Shown here: one piece after another, positions 1-62,089 of the stretch
Layout of the letters: each line of letters opens with the position of its first letter
Position numbering within the stretch: the stretch's first letter is position 1
NCBI GenBank assembly: GCA_038049695.1
Contig: CP142461.1
Location: 22,699,001-22,763,000 of the forward strand
Reading direction: 5' to 3'
Source: Cinnamomum chago
Lineage: Eukaryota; Streptophyta; Magnoliopsida; Laurales; Lauraceae
DNA length: 64,000 nt
Translations under genes and position numbers: made by a program
Notes under the pieces: generated by a model
What the model was told of the DNA's origin: nothing
Database searches by the model: none
What the model saw: only the letters and a program-made list of their open reading frames with translations

Positions 1-954
1 TTCTCTTAATCTTTGATCTAATTAAGATTGGATTCTTCACTTTGTTTTCAATCCAAGTTGTTTTTAAATCTTCCTTAATCATGCTTAGCCTAAATCTTTG
101 ATTTCTTTTATATAGCATGATTCATTTTCTTGGTTGAAACATTACTTGTTGTTTTCATTCATTTAAACCTTAGTCAAATTTATTTGTTTTTGAAAACAAC
201 ATTGCACATGCATCACATGTTCTAAGTTAGTCATTTTCATACAACTTGTGAAGCTCTAGATTTTCATGTCATTAACAAGTTGATTTTCATACATGTGATT
301 TGCATTAGATTTCAATCAAATCTTTTATGAGCCTTAAACTTTGAAATGCTTTGAGCATATATTGATTGAGCCTTCTTTTTAAACTTGATTGAAGTTATCA
401 CACACACACATCATGAGCATACACATTTGCATTCATTTAGTGTTTGTGTGAGTTTGTTATTCACTTTCATATCCGCCTATTTTATAGGCAAATACATTGA
501 GCTTTAATTATATCTCTTAGAGTGTTCTTTTGTGAAGACACCTTCTTAGAGAAATTTTCATTTGTAAAGGTTATTGCTTAGCCTAAGAAAAGCATTGTGT
601 AAAGGTTATTGCTTAGCCTAGAAAAGCATCTTGTAAAGGTTGTTGTTAAGCCTAGAAAAACAACATTGTAAGGGTTATTGCTTAGCCTATTGAAAAGCAT
701 AAATAGTGGAAATCCGGTGGGGTGATTGGATCACAAGCCGGTAGTGGATGTAGGCATTGAGGCCGAACCACTATAAATCTTTGTGTAGTGGTGTTTGCTT
801 GTGGTGATTATTTTATTAGCTTCCGCATATTGTTTGTTTATCATCACTTGTGACTAGTTTAGTTTAAGAAGTTAAAATTTGTCTAAATTGGTCACTAATT
901 GTAGCTCACCCTATTCACCCCCCCCCCTCTAGGGTTAGGATCCCAGGACTTTCA
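1..954 (+). mobile_element. SIRE-type Copia LTR, 3' portion, running in from the left
   Basis: The last several hundred bases resemble the end of the 2.2-kb LTRs at 9338-11537 and 14642-16841. They share the run of GCTTAGCCTA repeats, the GTGGAAATCCGGTGGGG block and the closing CACCCTATTCACC / CTCTAGGGTT segment, with clear divergence, so this is another subfamily. From about 955 the sequence is the end part of the Tekay-type LTR (compare 8836 onward). The SIRE LTR therefore sits inside that LTR and its right end is near 954. Whether it is a solo LTR or the edge of a full element cannot be told, because its left end lies outside the window. Confidence 0.75.
563..700 (+). repeat. Four imperfect copies of a ~35-bp repeat inside the SIRE LTR
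   Basis: The unit reads roughly AAAGGTTATTGCTTAGCCTA followed by GAAAAGCAT and a TTGT spacer. Each unit can fold as a small hairpin (GCTT..AAGC). A related set of four occurs in both LTRs of the nested element, near 11150-11285 and 16455-16590, so it is a lineage feature. Confidence 0.75.
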
Positions 955-1545: not shown

Positions 1546-1547
1546 AG

Positions 1548-1560
1548 TTGGTATCAGAGC
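1548..1560 (+). other. Primer binding site, initiator-Met tRNA type
   Basis: TTGGTATCAGAGC lies two bases after the LTR end. It is the usual complement of the initiator methionine tRNA 3' end used by many plant LTR elements. Confidence 0.9.
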
Positions 1561-1701
1561 ATTATTGGTTTCTAGATTAAAAACACGTAGAAACTCAAGA
1601 TGTGTGAGGATTGGTTTTCTTTAGGTATCTTAACTTATGCAGATTGTATAGTTTGTATGCTAGATTGAGTCCCATAGGACTAACAATTCTTATCTTGCAA
1701 C

Positions 1702-4700
1702 ATGGCTGGGGGACACACTCGCACTACTCAAAACAACAATCATGCCGGTTCCTGTGCAAATGAATCAGCTGAGACTAGATTCAATCAGTTGATGCAAGCC
1801 TTTGTGGATTCTCAAACAGCACAGGCTCAGAATCATACACAACAGAGGAAAGAGCAGCACAAGCAGAGGGAGATTAGGCTACCTTCCAGACTCAGATGTT
1901 GCAATTTTTACAAAGGCCAGCCCCGGTACCTCAAGTCATCATGCCTCCTAGGGTGACAGACTTGAATGATATATATGACAAATTCAAGAAGAGGAACCCA
2001 CCAGCGTACTTTGGGAATGAGGACCCCCTCGATGCTGATGAGTGGGTGGTACAGATGGAGAAGATTTTCAAGGTCTTTCAGTGTTCAGGATGGGAGTGTG
2101 TTCAGTTGGCATCTTACATGTTCCGCAGAGTAGTAGAGTTGTGGTGGAAATCGATCATGATACCTTATGACACGATTGCGGATACTGAAGCTTGGATGTC
2201 ATTTCAGACACTTTTCCGAGCTAAGTATATCCCACCCCACATTCAGGCTCAGAAGCTGATCGAGTTTGAATCCTTGGTCCAGGGAGAGGATCCAGTGCAG
2301 ATCTATGAGCAGAAATTCACCAACCTCTCTAGGTTTACACCGACCTTGGTTCGTCTTGAGGCTGACAAAGTGATGAGATTCATTCGGGGACTGAGGCCCG
2401 ATATTCAAATGGAGGTGACATCTGTTACCTTAGTCACATATGAGGAGAACCTCAAGCGTGCGTATTGTGCCGAAGAGTCCATTCGGAAGAAGACCCTCTA
2501 TGCACAGCAGCTTCAGTCCGTACTTGTACTAGTTAAGAACCCAGGTTTGGGACAATTCCAGCAGCGCCCATAGTACCCATATCAGTACCAGCAGCGTCCA
2601 CAGCAGCAGTATCAGCAACAGCAAGGTAAGAGGCCTAGATTTGATCAGATACGCAGAGCTTACTGCGAGCGTTGTGGCAAGAACTCGCATACTACTGCGA
2701 ACTGTAGATGGAAGACAGGGGCATGCTTCGAGTGTGGCTCGATGGATCACCAGAGACGAGATTGCCCTCAGGCACAAGAGCAGGGTGTGAGGAATGCATC
2801 TCCTCGACAACCATTGGTAGCACAGCCTTTGAGGCAGGCACCTCAGTAGCAACCTAGGGCACCTCAGTAGCCACAGCAGCTTCGATTGCTAGCATCACCA
2901 CAGATTCGAGGACAGTACAGACCCCAGGGACCGCAGAGACCACAAAGTTAGCAGTATGCATAGTTCAGACCTCAAGGGCAACAGCAGCAACAGAGGCCTC
3001 AGATGCATGGGAAGTTTTTCGCCTTAGATCAGCTGGAAGGCGAGGAAACAGGAGGAGCGGTGGAAGGTACACTCTCTATTTCAGATGTACCTACTAGACT
3101 CCTATTTGATTCTAGTTCCACGCATTCTTTCGTATCACCTGTTTTTTTTTTTTTTTTTTTACATGCTTGGTGGGAGATCTAGCCCCATTACATTGTATTT
3201 TGCTTGTTAGCACTCTCTTAGGGAAGACTGTACAGTGTGAATCCTATTATCTAGCTTGCAAAGTGCAGGTGGGGAGTTTTATCCTATCTGCAGATTTGAT
3301 CATCCTAGGGATGAGGACTTTGATGTGATACTAGGTATGGATTGGCTATCCACCTACCAAGCAGTTATGGATTGCTTCAATAAGACAGTCAGATTGCAAG
3401 TTTTGGCAGACAGTGTTGAGATTGTTGGGGATAGGAAACCCATGTCCACTAGAGTCATCTCAGCTTTGAGAGCCGATCGATTGATTCAGAGTGGATGTGA
3501 GGGTTATGTAGCCTTTATTACAGAGGATATAGTGTCCAAAGCGGTGGAGGATATTCCAGTTGTATGTGAATTCCAGGATGTCTTTCAAGAGGAGATACCT
3601 GGATTACCACCAGTCAGAGATATTGATTTCACGATTGAGCTTATGCCAGGGACAACACCTATATCAAAAGCTCCTTATCGCATGGCTCCAACAGAGTTAA
3701 GAGAGTTGAAAGCTCAATTACAGGACCTCTTAGATACAGGATTTTTGAGACCAAGTGTATCACCTTAGGGTGCACCAGTTCTCTTCGTGAAAAAAAAGGA
3801 TGGATCAATGCGTATGTGCATAGACTACAGGCAGCTGAATCAGGTTACGATAAAAAACAAGTATCCATTACCCAGGATAGATGAGTACGACATTTCTCCA
3901 AGATAGATTTGAGATCAGGTTATCACCAGATAAAAGTCAGGGATCAAGACGTGCAGAAAACAGCCTTTAGGACCAGATATGGACATTATGAGTTCTTGGT
4001 TATGCCATTTGGGCTGACCAACGCGCCAGGAGTTTTTATGGCCTTGATTAACAAAATCTTTGCACCATGCTTAGACAAGTTCACAGTCGTATTCATAGAT
4101 GATGTTCTAGTCTATTCGAAGTCCAGAGAGGAACATGCAGAGCATTTGAGGAGTTCATTGCAGATTTTGAGAGAGAATCAGCTCTATGTTAAACTTAATA
4201 AGTGTGAGTTTCGGCTTGAGCAAGTGTCTTTTCTTGGACATATCATCTCTAAGGAAGGTTTATCAGTAGATCCAGCAAAGATTAAAGCCGTAGTCAGTTG
4301 GCAGAGCCCAAAGTCAGTGTCAGAGATTAGGAGTTTTCTCGGTTTGGCAGGTTATTACAGAAGATTTGTGAAGGGATTCTTCAGTATTGCAACTCCATTG
4401 ACCAAATTGACGAGGAAAGATGTTCCTTTTGTATGGACGGAGCAATGTGAAGCGAATTTTCAGGAGTTGAAGACCAGATGGACCACGACACCTATTCTCT
4501 CGTTACCTACGGGAAATGGAGGATTGGTGATTTTTACAGATGCTTCAGGCATTGGATTGGGTTGCGTACTCATGCAGGAAGGAAAAGTAATAGCCTACGG
4601 ATCCAGACAGCTGAAAGAGCATGAGAAGAGGTACGCTACTCATGACTTGGAGCTTGCAGCAGTGGTTATGGCACTGAAGATGTGGAGACATTACTTATAT

Positions 4701-6421
4701 GACGAGAAATTTGAGGTTCACTCGGATCACAGGAGTCTCCAGTATCTGTTTGGACAGAAAGATTTGAATATGAGGTAGACTAGATGGATGGAATACATCA
4801 AGGACTACGATTTTCCGATAAAGTATCATCCCGGAAAAGCGAACGTGGTTGCAGATGCACTGAGCAGGAAGACAGCGAATGCCGGATGTTTACAGACAGA
4901 GTGGTCTTTGATAGAATTATTCAGAGATTTAGCCATAGAGTTCCAGCCTCAGAGTGAAAGAGTCATGGTTGCCAATATGCACACTTGGGAACCAGAGATT
5001 CTTAGCAGAATCAAAAGCAGTCAGTCAGAGGATCCAGAGTTAGTCAGATTGATAGACAGCATAGCCGACAGGCCAGAGTTCATACTTATAGATGGAGTGT
5101 TGTACTGCCAGGACAGGTTATAAGTACCGAGTGTACATGATTTAAGGAACGAGATTATGGTTGAGGCACACCATTCTTGTTATGCCATTCACCCAGGGAG
5201 CACCAAAATGTACCAGAACTTGAGAAGTTTTTACTGGTGGAACAACATGAAGAAAGACATTGCAGGATTTGTCTCGAGATGTCTAGTGTGTCAACAAGTG
5301 AAGATTGAACATCAAAAACCTCCAGGATTACTCCAACCATTGAAAACACCAGAATGGAAGTGGGAGCACATCACCATGGACTTCGTTGCAGGATTGCCAC
5401 CCATGAGGGACAATGACAGCATTTGGGTGATTGTTGACAGACTCACTAAGTCAGCACACTTCATTACGATGAAGATGAGAGGATCCATGGATGTTTTGGC
5501 ACACAAGTACATTGACAATGTAGTCAAATTGCACGGAATTCCAGATTCCATTGTTTCAGACAGAGATATGAGATTTGTGGGCACATTTTGTGTCAGTTTG
5601 CAAGCAGCTTTGGGTACTACATTAAACTTCAGCACAACGTATCACCCTCAGACCGATGGATAGACTGAGAGAACCAATCAGACTATGTAGGATATGTTGC
5701 GGGCATGTGTTCTTGAGTTTGGGAAAGACTGGAAGAAGAGTCTTCCGTTGTGCGAATTTGCCTACAACAACAATTATCACTCCAGTATCGGGATGGCACC
5801 GTTTGAGGCATTGTAAGGACGAAAGTGTAAGACCCCGATTTGTTGGGAAGAGATTGATATTCGGAGTTTTCACAGACCTTCGATCATTAGTGATACCAGC
5901 GAGAAAGTGAAGCAGATCATTGATAGGCTGAAGATTGCAAGAGACCGTCAGAAGAGCTACGCAGACCCGAAGAGGAGAGATTTGGAATTTCAAGTTGGAG
6001 ACAAGGTGTTTCTCAAAGTCTCACCGACTAGGGGAACTATGAGATTCGGTCAGAAAGGAAAACTGGCTCGGAGATACATAGGACCGTTCGAGATCGATAT
6101 GCGCGTCGACGAAGTGGCTTACAGATTGATACTACAAGCAGAGTTAGCAGGAGTTCATAGAGTTTTTCACATTTCTATGTTGAGGAAGTACATTCCAGAC
6201 CCTTCACACGTGCTACATCACGAACCTCTAGATGTTTAGCCAGATGTTACGTTCGTAGAGAGACTGAAGAAGATCATCGACACAAAGGAGCAAGTGTTGA
6301 GGACAAGGACCATTCAATGGGTCAAAGTACAGTGGGAGCATCACAGTCCAAGGGAAGCGACTTGGGAACTCAGACATCAAGTCCATGAGAAGTATCCAGA
6401 GTTATTGCCAGAGGTGTGTTA
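1702..6421 (+). pseudogene. Gag-pol region of the Tekay-type element (fossil)
   Basis: Domains in order: gag from about 1702 with a capsid-like segment at 1960-2500 and two CCHC zinc-knuckle motifs at about 2670-2770. Protease follows at 3080-3400 (DSSSTHS, then ILGMDWL). Reverse transcriptase is at about 3600-4400 with CIDYRQLN and FIDDVLVYS. RNase H is at about 4530-4750 (FTDASG). Integrase runs from 5160 with an HHCC-type start (CLVCQQVK) and core (TMDFVAGLP, IVSDRDMRF). A chromodomain-like tail at about 6310-6420 contains VQWEHHSPREATWE. The reading frames are interrupted repeatedly, so this is not an active gene. Confidence 0.9.
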
Positions 6422-6441
6422 GAGAATTGGAGGACCAAATA

Positions 6442-6458
6442 GCCAAAGCGGGGGAGGA
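6442..6458 (+). other. Polypurine tract of the Tekay-type element
   Basis: The purine-rich stretch CCAAAGCGGGGGAGGA abuts the LTR start TGTAACATCCCG at 6459. This is the expected plus-strand priming site. Confidence 0.8.
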
Positions 6459-7559
6459 TGTAACATCCCGTCCTCTAATTTTCTATTGAGTATAATTAAT
6501 TGCGTGATTAGTTAGTAAGTGTGTTTAGAGTCTAAGCAGTCGGGTTTAACGTAAAATCTCGTGTGCAAAGTCTCGCACGGTTCGGAGTGTGTTTGGGTAG
6601 TATAGAGAGTTGTTTTGCTAATTAGGTAAGTTTTCAGGGAATTTATGAGATTATGAGTTTTGTGAGTTTGGGTGCATCGGGTAGGTTTCGTCATTTCATG
6701 AACTTTAGTCTTCTGTCGCGTTTCGATTCGATGGGTTAAAGAGGCCCGAAAGTCATCAATTGTACACATAGGCTGACCCGAAACTTGATCAAAGCCCAAC
6801 CCAAGCCCAAGGCCCATTTCCTAAGCCAATCCCTTATATATTAGGTCAAAACCCACTTCTCTTTCTCTCTTTCATTTCACTTCCACAACAACAACAGCAG
6901 TAGCAGCCAGCCCCTTATTCCCTTCTCACTTTCTTTCATCTTCTTCTTCACCGTCGACGATCACCGGAACTTCGGCAAAGACATCCAATCCGCTAATCTT
7001 CTTCCTCAAGCCTCCAAGAGCCCAACCATAGACTTTTCTAAGTTTTCACCCACAACCCATTCAAAGGTAAGCTCCTAAAGCTTGTAACCATCTTAACATC
7101 GTCCTTATTGCTTAGAAATGGATTAGGGAGACTCACCTCAAACCTTGGCATGCATTTGTAGGAGTGATTTGGGTTTGGAGAGTGGTTTCATCCCATTGGA
7201 GCTTCTAAGAGTTTGTTTTCTCCAAGTTCTTCTTGATTTTTGATTTAGCACATCACCAAGGCAAGTAAATAGCTATATTCATGCTTGATATGCTTGCTTT
7301 CCTTGATTGGTATGAGAAAATCATGTTTTAGATGTTATTTGCTCCATTGTACCTTAGAGGTTTGAAAACATGATAATATGGCTTATTAGTTGAAGGGAAT
7401 GGGTTGAGAGGTTAATGACCTGATTTAGTTAGTTTTATGTATTGTAGTTAGCTTGCTTTTATCACTACATGAACTATTTATTAGGTTCAAGAGGTTTGGA
7501 AATGGAAAGGCTCCATTTCAGTGTAGAAACAGAACTCAGGCTCTATTTCTGAAGTTCAC

Positions 7560-7757
7560 GCGGTCGACCGGTCAGGGACCTCGGTCGAACGGCCACATAA
7601 GGTCAGGTTCCTTTGAACCTGATCAAAACACTGTTCCTATTTTCTGCTTACAACTGCGGGTCGACCGACCAAGGGCGCGTCGACCGGGCAAACATGAAGA
7701 AGGTCGACCTGGCTTCCTCAGGTCGGCCGGACCCCCTTTGTACGTGGTCGACCGAGC
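7560..7757 (+). repeat. Cluster of GGTCGACC-type palindromes in the Gypsy LTR
   Basis: At least six variants of GGTCGACC lie within 200 bp: CGGTCGACCGG, GGGTCGACCGACC, GCGTCGACCGG, AGGTCGACCT, GGTCGGCCGGACC and TGGTCGACCGAG. The same core is found upstream of the TATA region in the unrelated SIRE-like LTR at 9720-9852. Confidence 0.8.
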
Positions 7758-8464
7758 CAACTGCTGAATTCCTTCTGGGAAGGGATTTTTACCCAATGTT
7801 AGATGGACTTAGATGAGACTTTGATTACCCTTTTGTGGACTCATTTGACTTATAGTAAAGATGTTTGAGCAAACATTCTTTACGGTTGATCCGGTTGTAT
7901 CGGAATCTAACGTAGTTCAATCTTGAATGGTACGGGACAACGGGATACTCTTCTTTAATCTATGCACGAAGATTGTTCGTCTGAGTATCGTGAACCCCAA
8001 CCCCTTCGTTGACTGAATAGGTTATACGATACTTTAGGATGGACATTGTACTTAGGATTGGATTGTTTATTGCCTTCGCTTCTGAATTGTACCGTCTGGT
8101 ACTATCGACATGTGACAAGCATGTTCTTTAGTTCCGTTTGCTTTACTTTATTAGATGATCACTTTGAGAACTTAGATGATGGACTTAGGATCCCCTTTAC
8201 TGTTTCGTTTACTTTGATGTTCGTTTGAAGTGTTGAGGTTAGGGAGCTTTGATTGTCAAGCTGAAAGAGGACTACTATTGATGTTTGTTTGAGGTTTGAT
8301 TTGCTTTGGAATAAAGTAGTTCTCTAACGTTATTGAATCTTGTTCGCGCAAGAAGCCTAGCCCTTCACCGATGTCTTTAGGATTCTTTGTGTCAGGCACC
8401 ACTCAGCTGTTAACGTTCAACACAGTTGGGGCACCATCTGTGAGAGGACTGATACTATCCTCGA

Positions 8465-8730
8465 GTTGTTTGTTCCTCTAAGCGAGACAATGCCAGAGCT
8501 CACGGAGCCTGAGTTACTGGAGCTACGGGTTGTTTGTTCCTTGAAGCGAGATAGTGCCAGAGCTCACGGAGCCTGAGTTACTGGAGCTACGGGTTGTTTG
8601 TTCCTCGAAGCGAGACAGTGCCAGAGCTCACGGAGCCTGAGTTACTGGAGCTACGGGTTGTTTGTTCCTCGAAGCGAGACAGTGCCAGAGCTCACGGAGC
8701 CTGAGTTACTGGAGCTACGGGTTGTTTGTT
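8465..8730 (+). repeat. Tandem array, four 64-bp units plus a partial fifth
   Basis: Units start GTTGTTTGTTCC at 8465, 8529, 8593 and 8657, with a partial copy at 8721. Each contains AGCGAGACAGTGCCAGAGC and ends ACTGGAGCTACGG. Units three and four look identical and the first two differ slightly. It lies within the Gypsy 3' LTR. Confidence 0.95.
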
Positions 8731-9337
8731 ATTGGATACTGAGTTTTATCCCAATTGATGATATATTAGCATATGTGGACCGCCTACTTTGATAGTTTGT
8801 TTATGATTCGAATGCTATGCATCTCTTACGATCAGAGTACTATGCATATCTTATAACCATGTTTATCGTTTACTCTCTTTAGTACTGCATATCTATGGTG
8901 ATTTGTATATCTATTGTCTTGCCATCTGTTGTGTTGATGATGCTACTCTTGGTGTATAGGTACCGAGCCTTTCTACCCCGAGGAGGAGGAGGCGACGGAA
9001 GAAGTTCAGGCATATCAGACTGATGGCTTCCTAGAGTATAGTACGGACGACATTGTATAGTCGTGACGACCCTGTACATAAGAGCTTCACGATTCATTCT
9101 CCTAACTTCATCTTTTGTTTCTTTATACTTTTGTTTAGGTTTTAGTGTGGCATTCTTCCTTGTAATTAATATTTTGTTAACAGTCTTAAATTTTAACCTC
9201 AATTATGTTATTCAGTATATTGCTCTTAAACTATCCATCTTTAAGATACCATTTGTAATTATGAGGCTTCCGCTAATTGTTTACATATCTTTGAGGAAAT
9301 GTTTATACCTCACAGCGGTCTTCGATGTAGATGGAAC

Positions 9338-11537
9338 TGTTAGGAATTTTCTAGATTGCAATTTGATGGATGCATATCATTCTAGCATCATTTGATTTAC
9401 ACACTTGCATTGGTTTTAAAGTAAACTTGAAATCTTGATTTATTCATGCATTGTTTTTAAGATCTTGTTTTATGCATGATTTGTTTTTAAATCTTGGATG
9501 CATTTGATTTAGAAAAGAGTTTTCAAGAAATCAAGCAAGCCTTTGTTTTAAAAGTTTTGAAACTTTTTAGGCTTTTTATGTCATGTTTTAAAAACCTTTA
9601 AAATCTTTAAAACATGTTTTCCAAGCTTGATTTAGTGGCCAAAAGGTCCCCCAAAGAAATAACTTTGAAAAGTGCAAAAGTTGGAAATTTTGCAAAAAGG
9701 GGGTTGTCCCGGCAGTGTCGTCGGTCGACCGAGAGGCAGGTCTCGGTCGACCGAGACAACTGCAGGCAAAAATTGCCTGGGAGCACCAACGGTCAGAAAT
9801 ATGACCGTTGTGTGTTCTCGGTCGACCGAGGCCTGTTTCTCGGTCGACCGAGAACTAGCCGTTGGCCATTTTTCCCTATTAATATGAGTTCTTTCCCTTG
9901 CCAAAAGTTGGGAATTTTTAACCCCTCCTTGAGAGGATTTGAGGCATATCAAAAGGGAAGAGAACCAAGGGATGAAGGGGATGATTAGGAAAGCTAAAGC
10001 TTGGATTAATGAAGTTAAACCACCAAGTAGGCTCTTCCTTCCTTAATCATATGTTTGCATGCTTTTGTTTTATTTTTGGTAAATCATTTCTAGCATGTTA
10101 AACTATGTTTGTGTTGTGTCCTTAACATATTTTATGTTTTGAGTTGATTTATTGTTTTGGATACAACACCATATGATTCAATCCAAGTAGTACTTGAATT
10201 GGTAAATCAAAGTAGATCATGTTAATGAAAGAAACTTGGTAAATCATATGTAACATGATCCATATACTTGGTTGAATCATTGGTTGTTGTTTTCCATCAT
10301 AAGAACATCTCTCTCAAAACTAACTTATGTTTTGGATTCAACTTCTTTACAAATCATATGTTTTCATGTTTTGTTTTATCATTGGTAAATCTTGTAACAT
10401 GTTAACCTATGATGTGTTGTATCCTTAGCATGTGTTATATTTTGAATAGATCTATTGTTTTGGATACATCACCATTGATTCATCAAAGTAGTACTTTATC
10501 TTTGGTAAATCTAAGTAGATCATGTTAATGAAATATGTAACATGATTCATATACTTTGTTGAATCATTGGTTGTTGTTTTTCCATCATAAGAAAATCTCT
10601 CTCAAATGTATCTTATGTTTTGGATCCAACATCATTACAAATCATATGTGTATTATTGTTTTAATGCTTCACAACTTGCCTTACTTTGATTGGTAAATCT
10701 TTTTCAAGTTGTCCTTATAATTACATATGATTTGTCCCCTCTTTTCAATCAAATCTATTTTTATGTTTTGAGCTTCATGTTGATTTGATTGACATCCCTA
10801 TGCATCACATGTTTAGAGCTAATCCATTTCATACAACTTGTGTAACTTTGATATCATTAACAAGTTGTTACTTTTAACATGTGATTGCATTACATCCTCA
10901 ATCATAAATGTTTTATGAGCTAAAACTTTCAAAAGCCTTAGGCATACATTTATGAACTTTCATTTTCAAAATGATTGAGGACCACACACACACACTTCAT
11001 ATGTTTTCAACTTTGCATTCATAGTGTGAGTGTGTATTTGTATTTCACTTCCATATCCGCCTATTTAAGAGGCAATGTAATGAGCTTAAATGAATCTCCA
11101 TCAAGTGTATGAAAGACACTAAATTAGTGAGATAACCAACCTATGGTTGAAGAGGTTATTGCTTAGCCTATAAAAGCATAATGTATAGGTTGATGTTAAG
11201 CCTTGAAAAACATCATTGTAAGGTTATTGCTTAGCCTTGGAAAGCATATTGTAAAGGTTATTGCTTAGCCTATTGAAAAGCATAAATAGTGGAAATCCGG
11301 TGGGGTGTTGGATCACAAGCCGGTAGTGGATGTAGGCATTGAGGCCGAACCACTATAAATCCTTGTGTAATGGTGCTTGCTTTGTGGTGATTGTTTATAT
11401 TAGCTTCCGCATATTGTATGATAAATCATCACATGTGACTAGTTTGTTTTAAAGAAGTTAAATTTGTTAAAATTGGTCATAAAATGAGCTCACCCTATTC
11501 ACCCCCCCTCTAGGGTTCGGATCCAGGTGGAATTACA
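9338..11537 (+). repeat. 5' LTR of the SIRE-like element
   Basis: Begins TGTTAGGAATTTTC and ends GGTGGAATTACA. It contains four TCGGTCGACCGAG palindromes at 9720-9852, nested and serial inverted repeats (for example 10801-10889 and 10895-10981), a CA tract near 10985, and four GCTTAGCCTA repeats near 11150-11285. Confidence 0.95.
9720..9852 (+). promoter_or_regulatory. Four palindromes CTCGGTCGACCGAG upstream of the LTR TATA region
   Basis: Perfect 14-bp palindromes lie at 9742-9755, 9817-9830 and 9839-9852, with a near-perfect one at 9720-9733. A 9-bp inverted repeat, CAACGGTCA..TGACCGTTG, lies at 9787-9810. The AT-rich TATA-like region (CCTATA/TA-AATATG) follows at about 9870. The layout looks like promoter-proximal binding sites. 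The second LTR has the same set at about 15024-15156. A regulatory role is inferred from position only. Confidence 0.55.
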
Positions 11538-11539
11538 AG

Positions 11540-11551
11540 TGGTATCAGAGC
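11540..11551 (+). other. Primer binding site of the SIRE-like element
   Basis: TGGTATCAGAGC begins two bases after the 5' LTR and is complementary to the initiator-Met tRNA end. The following GGGTTACTCCATTTTAGGG resembles the leader of SIRE-type Copia elements. Confidence 0.9.
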
Positions 11552-11553
11552 GG

Positions 11554-14200
11554 GTTACTCCATTTTAGGGCTTAACAACCCGGAGTTGATCCTTGCTAGA
11601 TTTGGACCCTAGTGTTGTGATTTATTGCATATCTTTTTAAAGATTTCCACTATGATTGAAAATGATATTTTCCCTAGCCTCTTTGCACCACTCTAAGACT
11701 TTTACAAGTTATATCTTCTAGAGTTGGTGAGTCCTAAAAGTGATCTCTCAAGGACACCTTTTCAAGACCTTAGGTGTATTTTCAAAGGTAGTCTATTTGA
11801 GTAACCTTAGGCCTTGATACCCCTAGACCAACCTATGCTTTTTAGTTATATCCTTTTGTTGGTCATGTTACATTTGCATTTTGTTTCTTTATAGTCACAT
11901 CTTTTAAAATGCAATGTTTCTTTGTGATCATTTGATTTTGTCTTCATGAACTTTTATAATTATATATCATGGTTTTCAAAATCCTTTGATTGCAACCTTT
12001 TCATGATGGATTTGCATTTTGATCATATAGTTATATTTCTTGTAGTGCATATCTATTCATGATCAATTGATTGTGATTACAAATGCTTTCATAGCTAGTT
12101 TTTCATGATCAATTGATGTTGGAAAATCATTTGATGATTGTCATAGTTATATCCTTTTTGGAAATCAAATGATTTGAAGCAACTTTAGTTTTCCATTGAT
12201 TTACAAGTTATATCTTTTGATATGGAAAATTTGTAAGTGTCTATTGTTTTTACAAATTGAAAACTTTACAATAGTACACTTCTTGTTTTTCAAAATCACT
12301 TGCTCTTAATTCTATAAATGATTATTTGTTGGAATTTCATACATTGAAGTGATTTGAAAAACCTTGGAAAATGTTCTAAGCTTTATTGGTTGCATTTTTA
12401 GAAGCATTTTCCTTGAATTTATTTCCTTGTGCCTAATTATGATTGTATCATTTGAAAGGAAATAATTTTTACAAACAATTTGCATCTTTGCTCATTGAGT
12501 TACATTCTTTATGCAAATTGATTTTGATGTCTTACATTGCATGGTTGGATATAGTTTCATTGATTTGCATGTTTGTGCCTAACTTGGTATATTCTCTTAG
12601 ATGCATTTTGATGATTGTTTATGTGCTTTATAGTAAAATCTTGCATTTGAGCTTTTTATGTACATATGTGATTTTATGTGCTAAGCTCATTTGGTTTAAA
12701 CCACATATCCTTTTCCATTGCATTGTAAGCATAGTACATTTGCTAAGAGTGGAGATGTTACATGATAGCTTAATGGATCATTTTAGATGAATTGGAATTA
12801 AACCATTATTCTTAATAGGTATATCCATTTATGTGGTCCATCTTCATCTTTATGTGATCCATGATGTCTCTCTCACTTCATACCTTCTTGTACTTTCAAA
12901 AGTTATATTCTTTATTGATGATTGGTATGAGTTAGATCTTGAGTGTTGATTAATCCTCTCTATGCAAATGTCAAAGTGTTCTATGTATGGTTGTGATCTT
13001 AGTTCTATTTGTTGAAACCATACTAGAACTCAAATCCATCCTCTATGCTTTATAGTCATTTCTTTTTGGATGGTTATGATGTTGATTCATGTATATGCTA
13101 TAAGTGATATCATCCTAATACATGTTTCAACTTCATAGTAGTGATCTTGATCATATGAAACTCTTTGAAATCCACTCCTCATATTTCTATGTGTTTGATG
13201 GATAACTTAGATGTTGAATTCATATGATTTAGTCACTTTATAAATTGCATGCATTTCAAAGTTATATCCTTGTGCATTGCAATTTATCTTGTTCATCACT
13301 ATACTCAATAGTTATATCTTTATTAGTGATGAATATGCATTTATGATGCTTGATGGATTTTTGTCACATTCTTGCTCTTTATCATGTTATCAAATTCAAT
13401 TAGTTTCAATTGGTATAATGTTTGATTGATTTGATTTCTTGTGAATGTGATAAATCTTGTGTGCATTGGATTGAACTTGATAAGTAATATGGTTGTTCCA
13501 TGTCACACACCATTAGCATCATTATGCTCATGTTGCCACCTCTCTTTGCTCATATAGGTATATCTCATGACCACCATGTTTATGTGTTCATAATATTGGT
13601 TGGTTATTAGTTGAGGTTGGCTTCATGTTTGAATTTCATTTCACTCTTTCATGCACCTTAATAAGTCATATTTATTGATTGAATGAAATGATTTTCAAAA
13701 TCTTACATAGCATATGATTTTCATAAGTAATATTGATTGATGCTATGTTTGAGTAAACCCCATATCATGGATAGCTCTAATTTGGATTTTTCCTAATAGG
13801 TATATTTTTAAATCCATTTTAGAGTGATTGATTTAAATAGTCATATCCTAAATCTCAATTGGTATTCTTTGTCTTTCCAATTGATATCCATGATGGCTTT
13901 TCCCATAGACCTTGCTTTCTTTTGGCAATTTGATCATATGAGCTTGATAGTTAAATGAATCTAATCCTTTCTTTGAAGTTGACCCTCACTTGGTTAAACC
14001 ATCTTCTTCTTGTACCTAATAGTTAAATCTTTGTCAAAAGTTTGACAAAAGAAGAGAATGGATTGAGGGGGAGTGTAAACCTTCATAGGAAGTATTAGTT
14101 GTGATCAAATTGACCCTAGGATTGCCTTTGAACCCTTAGAGACTACTACCTCTCATGATAGCCTGTTATGGATTTCATCTTCGATTTCATTTGTTAACAG
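11554..14200 (+). repeat. Serial hairpin array forming the non-coding interior
   Basis: No domain is readable here. Instead the sequence is a series of short inverted repeats, each about 40-130 bp. Examples of paired arms: 11826-11832/11858-11864 (GACCAAC/GTTGGTC), 12125-12135/12164-12174, 12476-12485/12511-12520, 13081-13094/13118-13131, 13294-13301/13324-13331, 13705-13713/13740-13748 and 13775-13789/13810-13824. The loops often carry AGTTATATC or a close variant (AGTTATATCC, AGTTACATTC, AGGTATATTT). I count about twenty such units by eye. Large-retrotransposon-derivative elements are known to have structured non-coding interiors. This loop-sharing serial form is the unusual part. Confidence 0.8.
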
Positions 14201-14259
14201 GTGCTACTAATGGTATTTTCCTTGTTTCATGTGTGTAGGTACCTTTGCAATTTAATGGC

Positions 14260-14641
14260 AAAGGGGGAGAAATTATGCAAGTTCTCAAAAGGGTGAAGAG
14301 AAAGTCCAAGCTTCCAAAGGGGAGAGTTATGTATGATCTTCTACAAAGGGAGAGAATGCATACCTTGCCAAAGGGAGAAAGAGGCATGGTCAAAGGGGGA
14401 GAGCTAATAGAAGAAAGAAGCTTGGAGCTAAAGAAGATGCTTGGATAAAGAAAGAAAGAAGAAAGAAAGCTTGAAGGTTGATCAAGCTCCAAGCATCATG
14501 AAGATTGAAGTCCAAGAGCCCAAGCTATGAGAAGAAGCATCCAAGAAGATTTCAAGCCTTGTCCAGCTGAGGGGGAGCTGAAGACTAAGTGTGTATTGTC
14601 AGTGGTGAGTGTGTTTGCCATCAAATTGCAAAGGGGGAGAT
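14260..14641 (+). other. Repeated polypurine-tract-like motifs ending in the functional PPT
   Basis: CAAAGGGGGAGA or a close variant recurs near 14263, 14318, 14345, 14369, 14394 and finally 14629-14640, immediately before the 3' LTR. Only the last is in the correct place for plus-strand priming. Multiple purine blocks before the LTR are seen in some SIRE-type elements. The short open frame through 14245-14448 is a by-product of this purine-rich sequence. Confidence 0.7.
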
Positions 14642-14673
14642 TGTTAGGAATTTTCTAGATTGCAATTTGATGG
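14618..14673 (+). repeat. Perfect 14-bp inverted repeat around the PPT/LTR junction
   Basis: CCATCAAATTGCAA at 14618-14631 is the exact complement of TTGCAATTTGATGG at 14660-14673. The 28-base loop holds the purine tract and the first bases of the LTR. The left arm is internal and the right arm lies inside the LTR, so only the 3' junction can form it. Confidence 0.9.
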
Positions 14674-16841
14674 ATGCATATCATTCTAGCATCATTTGAT
14701 TTACACACTTGCATTGGTTTTAAAGTAAACTTGAAATCTTGATTTATTCATGCATTGTTTTTAAGATCTTGTTTTATGCATGATTTGTTTTTAAATCTTG
14801 GATGCATTTGATTTAGAAAAGAGTTTTCAAGAAATCAAGCAAGCCTTTGTTTTAAAAGTTTTGAAACTTTTTAGGCTTTTTATGTCATGTTTTAAAAACC
14901 TTTAAAATCTTTAAAACATGTTTTCCAAGCTTGATTTAGTGGCCAAAAGGTCCCCCAAAGAAATAACTTTGAAAAGTGCAAAAGTTGGAAATTTTGCAAA
15001 AAGGGGGTTGTCCCGGCAGTGTCGTCGGTCGACCGAGAGGCAGGTCTCGGTCGACCGAGACAACTGCAGGCAAAAATTGCCTGGGAGCACCAACGGTCAG
15101 AAATATGACCGTTGTGTGTTCTCGGTCGACCGAGGCCTGTTTCTCGGTCGACCGAGAACTAGCCGTTGGCCACTTTTCCCTATAAATATGAGTTCTTTCC
15201 CTTGCCAAAAGTTGGGAATTTTTAACCCCTCCTTGAGAGGATTTGAGGCATATCAAAAGGGAAGAGAACCAAGGGATGAAGGGGATGATTAGGAAAGCTA
15301 AAGCTTGGATTAATGAAGTTAAACCACCAAGTAGGCTCTTCCTTCCTTAATCATATGTTTGCATGCTTTTGTTTTATTTTTGGTAAATCATTTCTAGCAT
15401 GTTAAACTATGTTTGTGTTGTGTCCTTAACATATTTTATGTTTTGAGTTGATTTATTGTTTTGGATACAACACCATATGATTCAATCCAAGTAGTACTTG
15501 AATTGGTAAATCAAAGTAGATCATGTTAATGAAAGAAACTTGGTAAATCATATGTAACATGATCCATATACTTGGTTGAATCATTGGTTGTTGTTTTCCA
15601 TCATAAGAACATCTCTCTCAAAACTAACTTATGTTTTGGATTCAACTTCTTTACAAATCATATGTTTTCATGTTTTGTTTTATCATTGGTAAATCTTGTA
15701 ACATGTTAACCTATGATGTGTTGTATCCTTAGCATGTGTTATATTTTGAATAGATCTATTGTTTTGGATACATCACCATTGATTCATCAAAGTAGTACTT
15801 TATCTTTGGTAAATCTAAGTAGATCATGTTAATGAAATATGTAACATGATTCATATACTTTGTTGAATCATTGGTTGTTGTTTTTCCATCATAAGAAAAT
15901 CTCTCTCAAATGTATCTTATGTTTTGGATCCAACATCATTACAAATCATATGTGTATTATTGTTTTAATGCTTCACAACTTGCCTTACTTTGATTGGTAA
16001 ATCTTTTTCAAGTTGTCCTTATAATTACATATGATTTGTCCCCTCTTTTCAATCAAATCTATTTTTATGTTTTGAGCTTCATGTTGATTTGATTGACATC
16101 CCTATGCATCACATGTTTAGAGCTAATCCATTTCATACAACTTGTGTAACTTTGATATCATTAACAAGTTGTTACTTTTAACATGTGATTGCATTACATC
16201 CTCAATCATAAATGTTTTATGAGCTAAAACTTTCAAAAGCCTTAGGCATACATTTATGAACTTTCATTTTCAAAATGATTGAGGACCACACACACACACT
16301 TCATATGTTTTCAACTTTGCATTCATAGTGTGAGTGTGTATTTGTATTTCACTTCCATATCCGCCTATTTAAGAGGCAATGTAATGAGCTTAAATGAATC
16401 TCCATCAAGTGTATGAAAGACACTAAATTAGTGAGATAACCAACCTATGGTTGAAGAGGTTATTGCTTAGCCTATAAAAGCATAATGTATAGGTTGATGT
16501 TAAGCCTTGAAAAACATCATTGTAAGGTTATTGCTTAGCCTTGGAAAGCATATTGTAAAGGTTATTGCTTAGCCTATTGAAAAGCATAAATAGTGGAAAT
16601 CCGGTGGGGTGTTGGATCACAAGCCGGTAGTGGATGTAGGCATTGAGGCCGAACCACTATAAATCCTTGTGTAATGGTGCTTGCTTTGTGGTGATTGTTT
16701 ATATTAGCTTCCGCATATTGTATGATAAATCATCACATGTGACTAGTTTGTTTTAAAGAAGTTAAATTTGTTAAAATTGGTCATAAAATGAGCTCACCCT
16801 ATTCACCCCCCCTCTAGGGTTCGGATCCAGGTGGAATTACA
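14642..16841 (+). repeat. 3' LTR of the SIRE-like element
   Basis: Same length and almost the same sequence as the 5' LTR. Begins TGTTAGGAATTTTC after the purine tract and ends GGTGGAATTACA, followed by the duplicated GGAAC. A TATA-like CCCTATAAATATG lies near 15179, shortly after the four TCGACC palindromes. Confidence 0.95.
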
Positions 16842-16935
16842 GGAACATGATTAGGGCAAGTGACAAATGTTGGAAAAAGTTTTAATTGGCCATAATCTCA
16901 CGTATAAACCCGGTTTCACTTTTGGTGGCGTGACA
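16842..16935 (+). repeat. 3' LTR of the Tekay-type element, part after the insertion
   Basis: Begins with GGAAC, the second copy of the 5-bp target duplication of the nested element (first copy 9333-9337). It continues into the same LTR end seen at 1450-1545 and finishes GTGGCGTGACA. Confidence 0.9.
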
Positions 16936-21984: not shown

Positions 21985-23880
21985 GATTGCAAAGTATATA
22001 TATTTTATGGTCTCAATACAGTATATGATAAATAAATTGATTAATTTATTTATTTATCAATATATATTATTGCTTTCCTTTCATGAGATGAATGGTGATT
22101 TATTACTTAATGCACATGACCAATACATATGACATAATGGTTCATGAGATGAACCGGGTCCCATCAGTATATTAGATGTGATATATGTATATGGATGAGA
22201 TCCACATACGTGAGATATGTGTCACAAATCTTATACTTAAAATATCTTCACCACCAGTGATGAGATTGGACATCTCATCTGACAAGGTTGCAGCACTTTG
22301 ATCACTATGAGATAGTGTGATTTGTCTCGATCATCGGAATGTAAGATTCTGGATCATAGTGTTGGTACATTGGATGTATTGAAGGACCATGAGAAGCACC
22401 TTATGAAATACTGTCTCGATTTAAGGACAGCTCTCATAATTCCCTAGCAATAGGCTCTCAATCCCGAGACATTGATGAACTCATGTTTCTGTCTATTCAT
22501 TTGCTTTGAGTCACCAATGAGTGAGGCCAACTGTAGGTCAACACCTCGGTGTCTTGGGTACGTGGTAGTAGGACTGTGGGAACATTCAATGATCATGATG
22601 GAATCTATCTACATTATCCCTTTGTGCCAATTAATGGATTTATCATTGGTAAGTGCGCACCCATTCCAATTAAGAGTTAATTGGAGTGGTACCAAATGAT
22701 CACTATAATTAATTGGGGCTCAAGGATAATAAGATGTGGATCTAAGATTGGATGGGACGGATTTATTCCAATTGATCCATGGATAAGGATAGAGGGGCCT
22801 ACTTGTGGTAATTGGAAAGTTTATGGTCTTCATTGTAATATATTCCTAAGACTGGAGTGCAATTGCATTTATATAGTGGAGTTATTTGTAATTAACTATG
22901 GGCCCGGATTGCACATGAGATGTGGGGTCGCGTGTCCCAGTTGAAGCCAGCTTCTAAGGAATCCCTAGTGGTCCCCACGCTAGCCCAAATTATTAGAAAG
23001 ATTCTATTTCTACTTGAACTCTAAAAGGAATGTTACTATTTCTATTTGAAGTGAGACTTCTAATAGTGGTGATAGTAAGTTACTAATTATTAATGGAAGT
23101 AAGACTCCTATTTTACTTAGTAAAAGAGGAAGTTACTAATCATATTTGAAGTAAGACTTCTAATTGTGATTTAGTAAATGACTAATGGAAGTAGGACTTC
23201 TATTTTAATTAGAAAGGAGAAAGCTACTAATTGTTGTGGAAGTAAGACTTCTATGGCAACTAGCAAGGGAGAAGTTTACTATTTTGTAATGGGAGTTAAA
23301 CTTTTATTTCAAATAGGTAAAGAGGTGGAATGGAGGACTACAAATAGGGGATTTAATCCCTTTTGGACGTCCATAACAAAAGGAGAGCCGTTCCAGCCCC
23401 TTTGTGCAAGTGTTGCACAAGTTCTCTTCCTCTCTAAGTTCTCTTCTCTTCCTCCTCTAGTTCCTTAGAGTTACTAGTTAGGTTTTCTCTTGGAGATCTC
23501 ACCATCTTCTTGAGAAAAGAGAATCTAATACGGGTCATAGCGTGGAAGATCAAAAGGTGTTGGAGATTTTAATTTGATTAGTGAAGGTGTTCATCATCAA
23601 AGAAAAAGATCAACTTCTCCATTAGAGTACTACAAAGCTCCAAAGGTATAATTTGCATCCTTGTATGTTGTTGATTTCGTGGTTGCATGTTTAAGTGTTG
23701 TTTTATATCTTTTAGATAGTATGTATTGTTGTACATGATTTATGAGTTTGAGGGATTGCATCCTGGATTGGGTTTGTTGCCTTCTAGATAGATGATCCCT
23801 GCATCAAGTGGATCAAAAGTTTTTGAAACATGTCTGAAAGGCCCACCTATTTTCCAACATTTTCTGGATGGCAGGTGTTG
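21985..23880 (+). repeat. LTR-like repeat, copy B, with promoter-like tail
   Basis: The first ~1 kb is the inverted counterpart of 18690-19695. It is followed by a run of ~50-bp repeats (23040-23310), a TATA-like CTACAAATAGGG at about 23339, a CT-rich leader, and sequence ending GATGATCCCTGCATCAAGTGG near 23810. This U3-R-U5-like order suggests a long LTR of an unidentified family. No PBS or coding part follows, so a solo or truncated LTR is likely. Right border uncertain. Confidence 0.6.
23040..23310 (+). repeat. Five to six ~50-bp repeats carrying GAAGTAAGACTTC
   Basis: GAAGT(A/G)AGACTTCTA recurs at about 23048, 23096, 23148, 23187 and 23239, each followed by TTTAGTAA- and TACTAATT-like sequence. 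The motif is itself an inverted repeat (GAAGT..ACTTC). It lies just upstream of a TATA-like box, where LTR enhancer repeats usually sit. Confidence 0.8.
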
Positions 23881-24189
23881 TGGAGTTCTTTCTAAAAAAT
23901 GTCAGTTGGTTGCGTAGCTACTCTCGTTCTCTGTTCCCTTTAGTTTGGGGTGTTTTGTTTTGCAACTCTCTCTTTCTAGTCAAAGTCTTGAGAGCAGTTT
24001 AGCTTTTTTTTTGCCATTGTTGGGCTTGCTTTTTTATATCCAAAGCCGTTGCATTTTTTCTTTCTTTTATCCTATGGCCTTCTTCCCTTCATATGTTATG
24101 GAATTTTATGCAAGATAGAAGCTTGTAATTCCTCTAGATCTTGTACTGCGTTCGCACATCAAAATAATACAAACATCAATTTTTTTTTC

Positions 24190-24425
24190 CGATTGCAATG
24201 ATTAGTGACAACGTCGTTGCTTCATAGAAGCTAATGTAAAAAATTGTGTGTGACTGTACAACGACACCGTTGCTTAACAGAAGCTAGTGGAAGAAAATGT
24301 GTGTAACTATACAACCACGTCGTTGCTTCACAAAACTAGGGCAAAAAAAAATGTTTGTTATTATACGACGACGTCATTGCTTAATAGAAGCTAGTGGAAG
24401 AAAATGTGTCACTATACAACCTTAG
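24190..24425 (+). repeat. Four ~53-bp repeats with ACGTCGTTGC
   Basis: Units contain ACGACGTCGTTGCTT, AGAAGCTAGTGGAAGAAAATG and TGTGTAACTATACAAC, at about 24211, 24263, 24316 and 24368. The core matches the palindrome in the left terminal repeat (21630-21649), so the array is sub-terminal sequence of the same inverted-repeat element. Confidence 0.8.
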
Positions 24426-24980
24426 AAGAACCAAAGTTGTTACCTTGATGATTTAGTCACCCAACAATAATTTTAAAATAAGATAATGTCATGAAAAAAC
24501 TGTATATCAAAAGCTCTAATGAACTTTTCTCAAAAAGGTAAACACGAAACTCAAAATCTATGGTAGCTAATGCATGAAAAAACCTTAAAACTGTGCTATG
24601 CCTACCTCTTAATGGAGACCAACAACCTCCATAAGGAATATACAAGTTGGGGGAGAGTTTTGGTTCATTCAGTATTCAATCGTAAATGAAAAAGGAATGA
24701 GAAAAGGAAGCTGTGACATGGCGCGCGTGCGCACGCACACACACATATATAGAACATTAGCGACGACGTCGATGCTAACTCTTGATATTAAGTGACGACG
24801 TTGTCGCTTGTTGAAAAAAAGGCAAAAAAACTAAAAAAATCTGGCGGGAATACCACTTCCGTGCCATATATACTATTGGTACATCTTTTGGTTAGTGGCC
24901 ATCTAGGGTCCTTTTTTAAGTTAAACTCTCTAAAATAAATAAGGTATTGAAAAGCTAAAATTAGATATATTTTTTTTACC

Positions 24981-61735: not shown

Positions 61736-62089
61736 AAACTTCCGTCACTGGGTCAGAGCAGTGCATGCACGCCCAAAGCCTATTCTCAGGTACTCGCTCG
61801 TCAAACCCGTCTCTTTTAGATTTTTCATCCTTATGTTGAGATTTCTAAAAATTCAAAACAATGCTTACTTTCATAGTTTCATTGTTAAAAAAAATCCAAA
61901 AATCCAAGTTTAGGAGACTCTCTCCCAGACTTAACCAAATTTTCAACCCTTGAACCCAAAATTCATGGTTTGAAACAAAATCAGGACTCAGGAATTTCCA
62001 TCCTAGTCCACCCTGACTTTTAGAACCAAAAACAATTTTAAGTCAAAATTTACGACCCTCATGTAATTAAACAAAAAGGGTTTTTTCAA

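What the first reader, a model, noticed from the sequence alone, without database searches (positions are those of the whole stretch)
11538..14641. Retrotransposon interior made of a serial hairpin array with a shared loop motif
The 3.1-kb interior of the SIRE-like element encodes nothing. It consists of some twenty consecutive inverted repeats whose loops often carry AGTTATATC or close variants. Seen directly: perfect or near-perfect arms at 11826/11858, 12125/12164, 12476/12511, 13081/13118, 13294/13324, 13705/13740 and 13775/13810. Structured non-coding interiors are known for LARD elements. A repeated stem-with-constant-loop design, with unrelated stem sequences, is not something I know described. 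It could be a multivalent RNA scaffold for packaging or dimerisation, or a source of hairpin small RNAs.
Basis: partly seen in the sequence, partly recalled or inferred. Interest (0 to 1): 0.82.

Follow-up and report, generated by a model that had tools for sequence, protein, structure and literature searches.

The report
Retrotransposon built of constant-loop hairpins
A recently inserted retrotransposon, probably of a plant and with no recognisable genes, has an interior made largely of hairpins placed end to end, whose stems differ while many of the loops share one short sequence; this looks like RNA built to be grabbed many times by one partner, perhaps the particle protein of another element.

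Summary
The interior of an LTR element (LTRs 9338-11537 and 14642-16841, 2198 of 2200 identical; target-site duplication GGAAC) has no Pfam-recognisable coding. From about 11686 to 14074 it is a chain of hairpins: 38 perfect stems of 7 bp or more against 9.0 in shuffles, and span-limited folding 11 SD below shuffles. A motif found without using stems (CTTAATAGTTATATCTTTTT, core AGTTATATC) recurs on the + strand and lies preferentially in loops. The left flank of a motif site pairs with its own right flank better than with those of other sites (0 of 20,000 permutations), clearly so at 14 of 24 sites. Stems are thus unit-specific while the loop is shared.

The LTRs carry hairpins too, with a possibly related loop word (TTGGTAAATC, 6 per LTR). 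A diverged LTR of the same family at window 1-953 keeps three LTR hairpins with some compensatory changes, though other predicted pairs are lost. The last 570 nt of the interior are not structured.

Best reading: a non-autonomous LARD-type element whose RNA presents many loop ligands, most likely to a helper's Gag (dispersed packaging signals). The structure is shown; ligand and function are inferred. No second interior could be obtained.

The parts
9338..11537 (+). 5' LTR, TG...CA, 2200 bp
   Evidence: 2198 of 2200 identical to the 3' LTR
14642..16841 (+). 3' LTR
9333..9337 (+). target-site duplication GGAAC, left
   Evidence: empty site seen in the other LTR of the Ty3/gypsy host element at about 1358-1546
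16842..16846 (+). target-site duplication GGAAC, right
11540..11551 (+). primer-binding site TGGTATCAGAGC (initiator-Met tRNA type; assignment recalled)
   Evidence: sequence
11686..14074 (+). hairpin array: 43 consecutive helices in the span-limited MFE fold (median length 52 nt, median gap 3 nt)
11826..11864 (+). hairpin GACCAAC / GTTGGTC, loop with TTTAGTTATATCCTTTT
11874..11914 (+). hairpin TTGCATTTT / AAAATGCAA, loop with CTTTATAGTCACATC
12124..12175 (+). 12-bp perfect hairpin, loop with CATAGTTATATCCTTTTT
12476..12520 (+). 10-bp hairpin CAATTTGCAT / ATGCAAATTG, loop with GAGTTACATTC
13075..13137 (+). hairpin with 17 WC pairs, loop with GCTATAAGTGATATC
13240..13287 (+). 10-bp hairpin, loop with AAAGTTATATCCTT
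13292..13333 (+). 10-bp hairpin, loop with AATAGTTATATCTTT
13628..13699 (+). long hairpin with TT/TT internal mismatches, loop with TTAATAAGTCATATTTAT
13705..13748 (+). 9-bp hairpin ACATAGCAT / ATGCTATGT, loop with ATAAGTAATATTG
13775..13824 (+). 13-pair hairpin, loop with CCTAATAGGTATATTTTT
13994..14066 (+). hairpin with loop CCTAATAGTTAAATCTTTG, last motif of the array
10042..11035 (+). LTR hairpin region; six TTGGTAAATC motifs at 10076, 10199, 10236, 10382, 10502, 10690 (repeated in the 3' LTR)
14618..14673 (+). 14-bp perfect stem CCATCAAATTGCAA / TTGCAATTTGATGG with most of the polypurine tract and the start of the 3' LTR in its loop
14065..14639 (+). eight polypurine-tract-like runs (AAAGGGGGAG and variants); the last one is the PPT
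1..953 (+). diverged LTR of the same family, cut by the window start; matches element 10800-11524 at 79.7% and 10460-10788 at 63.6%
   Evidence: end at about 953 read

Best explanation
The element is a recently inserted, non-autonomous LTR retrotransposon of LARD type. Its transcript is a chain of short hairpins in which the stems are held only to pairing while an asymmetrically placed loop motif is held in sequence: about 10 nt, then the AGTTATATC-type core, then about 5 nt. The loops are most likely recognised in trans by one RNA-binding partner, and the multivalent array draws the RNA into the virus-like particles of an autonomous helper through its Gag, in the manner of dispersed packaging signals. 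Shown: the LTR element, absence of recognisable coding sequence, stem excess, loop motif, motif preferentially in loops, unit-specific pairing at a majority of motif sites, and retention of three LTR hairpins with some compensatory changes in one diverged copy. Inferred: that the RNA sense strand is what is selected, that one protein binds the loops, that this protein is a helper's Gag, and that the result is packaging.
For: Loop motif found de novo without reference to stems: 12.68 bits over 24 sites; with equal numbers of starts, 12.68-12.74 bits in 3 runs against at most 10.23 in 40 shuffles. Hits of that profile of 12 bits or more on the window's + strand: 18, all 18 in the interior on which it was trained; minus strand: 5, none in the interior, two of them the same place in the two LTRs. 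Swap test at the 24 sites: own-flank stem score 8.06 against 5.53 for 552 swapped flank pairs; own score 8 or more in 14 of 24 against 34 of 552; 0 of 20,000 permutations reach it. Motif-independent stems: 18 of 38 loops hold the core at 7 bits or more against 8.8 expected (max 17 in 2000 placements), mean-score test 1 of 2000; the reverse-complement motif is in 0 of 38 (some of the 38 loops overlap). Motif cores unpaired at probability 0.57 against 0.40 +/- 0.046, 1 of 5000. In the LTR, alifold energy of the two copies is -38.0 against -10.6 +/- 3.3 for 200 shuffles of columns; 47 consensus pairs: 39 unchanged, 4 wobble changes kept, 4 double changes kept, against 0 or 1 double changes kept in six slid controls. 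A further stem, 10519-10546, shows T-A to C-G (read by eye). Weak hints for the sense strand: T.T 17 against A.A 2 mismatches (P 0.02 against composition, 0.008 against control stems); 5 G.U against 0 A.C among changed pairs between two LTR repeats. Precedent: Gag-less BARE2 RNA is packaged and is said to keep dimerisation and packaging signals (PMC3735527, passages); multiple dispersed stem-loops with a shared recognition motif drive RNA virus assembly (PMC6281560, passages).
Against: Only one copy of the interior is known here, so compensatory change was shown for LTR hairpins, not for the array itself. Not every motif site has a good stem: 10 of 24 score below 8 in the swap test and 8 of 24 score 6 or less, about the swapped mean; own flank is best of its row in 13 of 24. 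About half of the helices (21 of 43) hold none of the 24 cores. Folding excess is the same on both strands (z -11.1 and -10.0), so energy does not show which strand, or whether RNA or DNA, matters. In ungapped interior stems G.T (5) does not exceed A.C (8); sense-RNA selection would predict an excess. Of 74 ungapped pairs predicted from the LTR alone, 18 are broken in the diverged copy, 9 changed and kept, 47 unchanged; from the diverged copy alone, 17 of 69 broken, 8 changed and kept, 44 unchanged. Between the two repeats inside the LTR, 14 predicted pairs differ: 6 keep pairing (5 wobble, 1 double) and 8 are unpaired in one repeat; paired positions (14 of 113 changed) are not more conserved than unpaired ones (16 of 166). 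The six LTR motif sites do not pass the swap test clearly: own flank best in its row, ties counted, for 3 of 6. No helper element, Gag or expression data were available.
Confidence: 0.42

Rival explanations
1. A constant-loop hairpin array bound in trans by a host RNA-binding protein or ribonucleoprotein (export, stability, localisation or translation avoidance) rather than by Gag.
For: The same structural evidence. A coding-free RNA must reach the cytoplasm and escape decay (inference). The core contains AUAGU, which resembles sites of known RNA-binding proteins (recalled).
Against: No host factor with this binding site was identified. A helper-packaged element needs Gag recognition anyway.
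Confidence: 0.22
2. DNA-level origin: quasi-palindrome formation and correction by template switching during reverse transcription or repair keeps the arms complementary, and the motif is the pause or turn-round point; no RNA function.
For: Most stems are near-perfect Watson-Crick; no G.T excess in ungapped stems; equal folding excess on both strands. Explains unrelated stems in one step.
Against: Does not explain why the motif recurs about every 100 nt or why it is kept in sequence. T.T mismatches exceed A.A. Wobble-type intermediates and double changes occur between LTR copies.
Confidence: 0.18
3. Source or decoy of small RNAs: a chain of miniature hairpins processed by Dicer-like enzymes or shielding the RNA from silencing.
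For: Many hairpins; weak sub-threshold Rfam matches to miRNA precursors such as MIR395 at 12285-12362 (E 0.62, 21.9 bits against a gathering score of 56).
Against: Stems mostly 7-15 bp with 20-40-nt loops, short for plant Dicer-like substrates (recalled). No Rfam family reaches its gathering score. Loop conservation would not be needed.
Confidence: 0.1
4. Structured filler: selection only for a compact, ORF-poor RNA of packageable length; the loop motif is a relic of tandem duplication.
For: No recognisable coding; tandem duplications exist in the LTR; one of 242 interior unit pairs (11887 and 12023) keeps flank similarity above all of 600 shuffles.
Against: Stems are otherwise unrelated between units (mean flank similarity 14.17 against 13.48 shuffled), so the loops outlived the stems, which is not expected of a relic.
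Confidence: 0.08

Closest known systems
LARD elements (large retrotransposon derivatives, such as Sukkula)
   Same: LTR elements with a core domain that encodes no protein; [quoted passage not shown]
   Different: A serial hairpin array with one shared loop and unrelated stems is not mentioned in the passages read; the defining 2004 paper (PMC1470764) was not held
Dispersed packaging signals of single-stranded RNA viruses (such as MS2; review PMC6281560, passages)
   Same: Many stem-loops that share a short recognition motif
   Different: Known in viruses that encode their own coat protein and lie mostly within coding RNA (recalled); here the array fills a coding-free retroelement and no binding is shown
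BARE2, a Gag-less parasite of BARE1 in barley (PMC3735527, passages)
   Same: Copia element that cannot make Gag and whose RNA is packaged all the same
   Different: BARE2 may still translate pol and is said to keep the conserved packaging and dimerisation signals; no constant-loop array is mentioned in the passages read
Cassandra and other TRIMs (PMC7215508, passages)
   Same: Non-coding LTR elements with conserved predicted RNA folds
   Different: Short LTRs and almost no internal domain; the fold is a super-hairpin of the LTRs with 5S sequences, not an array
Retrozymes (PMC4918200, search listing only)
   Same: Non-autonomous plant retrotransposons whose function lies in RNA structure
   Different: Defined by hammerhead ribozymes; no Rfam ribozyme match here

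Membership tests
LARD | two long LTRs, TG...CA, with a target-site duplication | tested here: met
   2198 of 2200 identical, GGAAC duplication, empty site
LARD | PBS and PPT next to the LTRs | tested here: met
   TGGTATCAGAGC at 11540; AAAGGGGGAG at 14630
LARD | interior of several kb without gag or pol | tested here: met
   longest stop-free run 115 codons, reached by 17 of 200 shuffles; 0 Pfam matches up to E 1 for all 4 interior frames of 60 codons or more
LARD | family of structurally uniform copies in the genome | not testable with these tools
   no genome held; only one partial LTR relative seen
SIRE lineage of Ty1/copia | reverse transcriptase/integrase phylogeny | not testable with these tools
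   no coding sequence
dispersed packaging signals | multiple stem-loops sharing a loop motif | tested here: met
dispersed packaging signals | loop motif binds the capsid protein and promotes assembly | not testable with these tools
   needs binding and VLP assays
miRNA precursor cluster | match to a miRNA family at gathering score | tested here: not met
   4 matches up to E 1, 21.3-22.2 bits against gathering scores of 56-90
retrozyme | hammerhead ribozyme in the LTRs | tested here: not met
   no hammerhead among the 4 Rfam matches up to E 1 in 9338-16841

The most novel reading that the evidence does not exclude
A gene-less plant retrotransposon whose whole transcript, LTRs included, is a multivalent RNA ligand: dozens of hairpins with free stems and a fixed asymmetric loop, evolved to capture another element's Gag. 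This would be dispersed packaging signals concentrated into a dedicated non-coding genome.
Probability: 0.38. Interest if true: 0.9.

Novelty: new variant of a known kind. Interest (0 to 1): 0.7.

Why it matters
How non-autonomous plant LTR elements without genes are chosen for packaging is largely open (my judgement; BARE2 is the worked example I saw). A loop motif repeated some two dozen times in one RNA gives a direct, testable candidate signal: bind the loop to candidate Gag proteins, or alter the loops while keeping the stems. If right, it would extend dispersed packaging signals from RNA viruses to retrotransposon parasites and explain what keeps a coding-free LARD interior from decaying.

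Tried and rejected
Tested and dropped. (1) Chance from AT-richness: rejected by dinucleotide shuffles and by other regions of the same window. Two of six control regions also folded clearly below shuffles on at least one strand: 1-1500 (z -3.5/-4.8), of which 1-953 proved to be the related LTR, and 22500-24890 (z -1.9/-3.9); the other four lay between -1.1 and +2.9. (2) Hidden coding: longest stop-free run not unusual, no Pfam match. (3) Known RNA family: none at gathering score. (4) Relatives in public collections: LTR-end, PBS-leader and LTR-palindrome patterns found nothing in viral contigs. The loop pattern gave 38 viral stretches; all 38, as far as held, were scanned and have 1-3 motif sites each, no array, so chance. 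The palindrome pattern gave 2 bacterial contigs, taken as chance from their titles and not studied further. (5) MAFFT alignment of 16 interior units did not keep the arms in register and was not used for pair counts. (6) U12-type 5' splice sites or tRNA anticodon pairing as the loop's meaning: considered from memory, no call; the conserved positions (AG..A.ATC) do not fit. (7) Stem-loop kissing: the core is not self-complementary (direct reading). Literature: nine searches answered; in their listings I saw no paper describing a constant-loop hairpin array in an LTR element. Most subscription papers are not held.

Rows dropped and choices: one search used 24 of the 29 + strand interior matches with up to 2 mismatches (11739, 12417, 12930, 13880 and 14325 left out by eye); its scores are descriptive only. 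The unit-similarity test used 23 sites that I listed by hand. The statistical claims rest, whose site lists were made by rule; the motif width 20 and the number 24 were set by me. One search gave the real sequence 250 starts and its 6 shuffles (9.4-10.0 bits) only 60; one search repeated this with 250 starts for both. The motif profile was trained on the interior, so its hits there are partly by construction. The double-change counts use an alifold consensus, which by its making shows no broken pairs; its energy control shuffles columns without keeping dinucleotides; the one-sequence counts with broken pairs are given under evidence against.
Full report
What is there. The window is repeat-rich DNA, most likely of a plant (inference): no genome is held for it and it contains several Ty3/gypsy and Ty1/copia coding remnants. 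At 9338-16841 lies an LTR element with 2200-bp LTRs (2198 of 2200 identical), flanked by GGAAC duplications and inserted into the 3' LTR of a Ty3/gypsy element; the other LTR of that element shows the empty site. A TGGTATCAGAGC primer-binding site and an AAAGGGGGAG polypurine tract bound the interior. The near-identity of the LTRs means that the element inserted recently, so its sequence is close to that of a transcript that was replicated (inference).

The interior has no sign of coding: the longest stop-free run is 115 codons, reached by 17 of 200 shuffles, and all four interior frames of 60 codons or more match no Pfam family up to E 1. It matches no Rfam family at gathering score.

Hairpins. 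Ungapped stems of score 8 or more: 18 in the interior against 3.82 +/- 1.87 in shuffles; score 10 or more: 8 against 0.36. In 3103-nt windows across the 64 kb, those mostly over the element have 17-22 such stems, those wholly outside at most 10. Perfect stems of 7 bp or more in 11539-14070: 38 against 9.0 +/- 3.2 (max 17 of 200 shuffles). Folding with base-pair span up to 100 gives z = -11.1 for 11680-14070 on the + strand and -10.0 on the - strand. Fixed 120-nt windows show a weaker effect, mean z -1.1 over the array against -0.2 (left flank) and -0.5 (right flank) on average, and the blocks 56843-61843 and 61843-64000 reach -1.0 and -1.6; such windows cut hairpins (inference). The MFE fold has 43 consecutive helices with a median length of 52 nt and a median gap of 3 nt. 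The last 570 nt (14071-14641) are unstructured (z +1.4 and -0.1) and rich in polypurine runs.

Shared loop. AGTTATATC occurs 6 times in the window, all in the interior and all on the + strand; with up to one mismatch 14 times in the interior against 0.7 expected, and never on the interior's minus strand. A de novo search of the interior, blind to stems, gives CTTAATAGTTATATCTTTTT at 12.68 bits over 24 sites; with equal numbers of starts 40 shuffles reach at most 10.23 bits. With that profile the window's + strand has 18 hits of 12 bits or more, all in the interior on which it was trained; the - strand has 5, none in the interior. The motif lies preferentially in loops: 18 of 38 motif-independent loops hold the core at 7 bits or more against 8.8 expected (mean-score test 1 of 2000 placements), the reverse complement in none (some of these loops overlap), and the cores are more often unpaired than random 9-mers (0.57 against 0.40 +/- 0.046; 1 of 5000). 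In the 24 hand-picked hairpins the 5' part of the loop is longer than the 3' part in 21 (medians about 10 and 5 nt).

Unrelated stems. I paired the left flank of each motif site with the right flank of every other site. Own flanks score 8.06 on average against 5.53 for 552 swapped pairs; none of 20,000 permutations reaches the own mean, and own flanks score 8 or more in 14 of 24 sites against 34 of 552 swaps. The stems are therefore unit-specific. Ten sites score below 8, eight of them 6 or less, so perhaps a third of the motif sites have no convincing stem. Flanks of different units are barely more alike than shuffles (14.17 against 13.48); one of 242 unit pairs (11887, 12023) exceeds all 600 shuffles and may be a late duplication.

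The LTRs share the design. LTR parts fold far below shuffles (z -8.9 for 9950-11100, -9.3 for 9338-9949, -2.5 for 11101-11538, + strand), the second owing much to four TCGGTCGACCGAG palindromes. The LTR has its own loop word, TTGGTAAATC, six times per LTR and nowhere else exactly in the window. Intermediates in the interior (TAGGTATATC at 12816 and 13555, TAGGTATATT at 13797, TAGTTAAATC at 14020) suggest that the two words are variants of T[AT]G[GT]TA[AT]ATC; this is my reading, not a test. A second shared loop, TTTTATGTTTTGAG, occurs in the hairpins 10111-10169 and 10745-10792, whose stems differ. The swap test on the six LTR sites is not clear (own flank best in 3 of 6), perhaps because the LTR holds a tandem duplication of about 300 bp. 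Between the two repeats of that duplication 14 predicted pairs differ: 5 keep pairing by a wobble, 1 by a double change, and 8 are unpaired in one repeat; paired positions are not more conserved than unpaired ones (14 of 113 and 16 of 166 changed).

A second family member. Window 1-953 is part of a diverged LTR of the same family: 79.7% identity to 10800-11524 and 63.6% to 10460-10788. Three LTR hairpins between 10790 and 11060 are kept in it. The two-sequence consensus has energy -38.0 against -10.6 +/- 3.3 for shuffled columns. Of its 47 pairs 39 are unchanged, 4 keep pairing through a wobble and 4 through a double change, among them C-G to T-A, T-A to A-T and A-T to T-A; six slid controls give 0 or 1 double changes kept. 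If pairs are taken from the LTR sequence alone, 47 are unchanged, 9 changed and kept and 18 broken of 74 ungapped; from the diverged copy alone 44, 8 and 17 of 69. Part of the fold is thus not conserved. A fourth stem (10519-10546; ATCATGT / ACATGAT) reads ATCATGC / GCATGAT in the other copy (alignment, read by eye), while its innermost pair is lost there. This answers the finder's refutation test in favour of the main hairpins, for the LTR only; no second interior was available.

Which strand, RNA or DNA. The evidence is thin. T.T mismatches exceed A.A in interior stems (17 to 2; P 0.02 against composition, 0.008 against control stems), as expected if U.U is tolerated in the sense RNA. Changed pairs between the two LTR repeats give 5 G.U and 0 A.C. 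Against this, ungapped interior stems have 5 G.T and 8 A.C, while the gapped hand-picked set has 13 and 4, and the folding excess is the same on both strands.

How it may work. Stems held only to pairing and loops held in sequence is the mark of RNA hairpins that present a loop to a ligand (established reasoning, recalled). A coding-free LTR element must have its RNA packaged and reverse-transcribed by proteins of another element; BARE2 in barley, which cannot make Gag, is a worked case (PMC3735527, passages). In RNA viruses, many stem-loops with a shared recognition motif promote capsid assembly, and the review that I read in passages says that similar mechanisms may occur for repurposed Gag-like proteins (PMC6281560). 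I therefore think a multivalent Gag ligand most likely (0.42), a host RNA-binding partner next (0.22), and a purely DNA-level palindrome process third (0.18).

Place among known things. By LTRs, PBS, PPT, duplication and empty interior it meets the structural features of a LARD that could be tested. [quoted passage not shown] the defining paper was not held. In the listings of nine answered literature searches I saw no description of a constant-loop hairpin array in such an element, in a library that lacks most subscription papers. I file it as a new variant of a known kind.

The mended points were: the number of motif sites without a good stem, the unequal starts (repeated), the outside blocks, the LTR-repeat pairs that do not keep pairing, and one mislabelled intermediate word.

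Noticed in passing
window 1-953: Diverged LTR of the same family, cut by the window start and not followed by a PBS, so a 3' or solo LTR; its hairpin 147-201 has TTAGTCAAATTTATTTG in the loop, which resembles the interior motif.
   Followed up: yes
window 14618-14673: 14-bp perfect stem that places most of the polypurine tract and the start of the 3' LTR in a loop, plus seven further polypurine-like runs upstream.
   Followed up: partly
window 954-9337 and 16847 onward: Ty3/gypsy element whose 3' LTR is the insertion site of the hairpin element; its 5' LTR shows the empty site. A 64-bp tandem repeat (4.2 copies) lies at 8465-8730.
   Followed up: partly
window 9721-9856 and 15025-15160: Four copies of the palindrome TCGGTCGACCGAG per LTR, G+C-rich in an A+T-rich LTR, able to form strong alternative hairpins.
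   Followed up: no
window 10111-10169 and 10745-10792: Two LTR hairpins with unrelated stems share another loop word, TTTTATGTTTTGAG: a second instance of same loop, different stem.
   Followed up: no
window 35104-46082: Ty3/gypsy element with matching ends (35104-35403 and 45783-46082, 99%), one long gag-pol frame at 36621-41759, a 55-bp tandem repeat (7 copies) at 41830-42214, and minus-strand open frames of 297 and 316 codons within 42691-44551 without a Pfam match.
   Followed up: partly
window 62548-63502: Long degenerate array of 20-24-bp and higher-order repeats (CGGCT...ATGCCA-like units) overlapping a 210-codon open frame (62958-63590) without a Pfam match.
   Followed up: no
window 56843-64000: Fixed-window folding on the + strand is somewhat below shuffles here too (mean z -1.0 and -1.6 in two blocks); cause not examined.
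   Followed up: no
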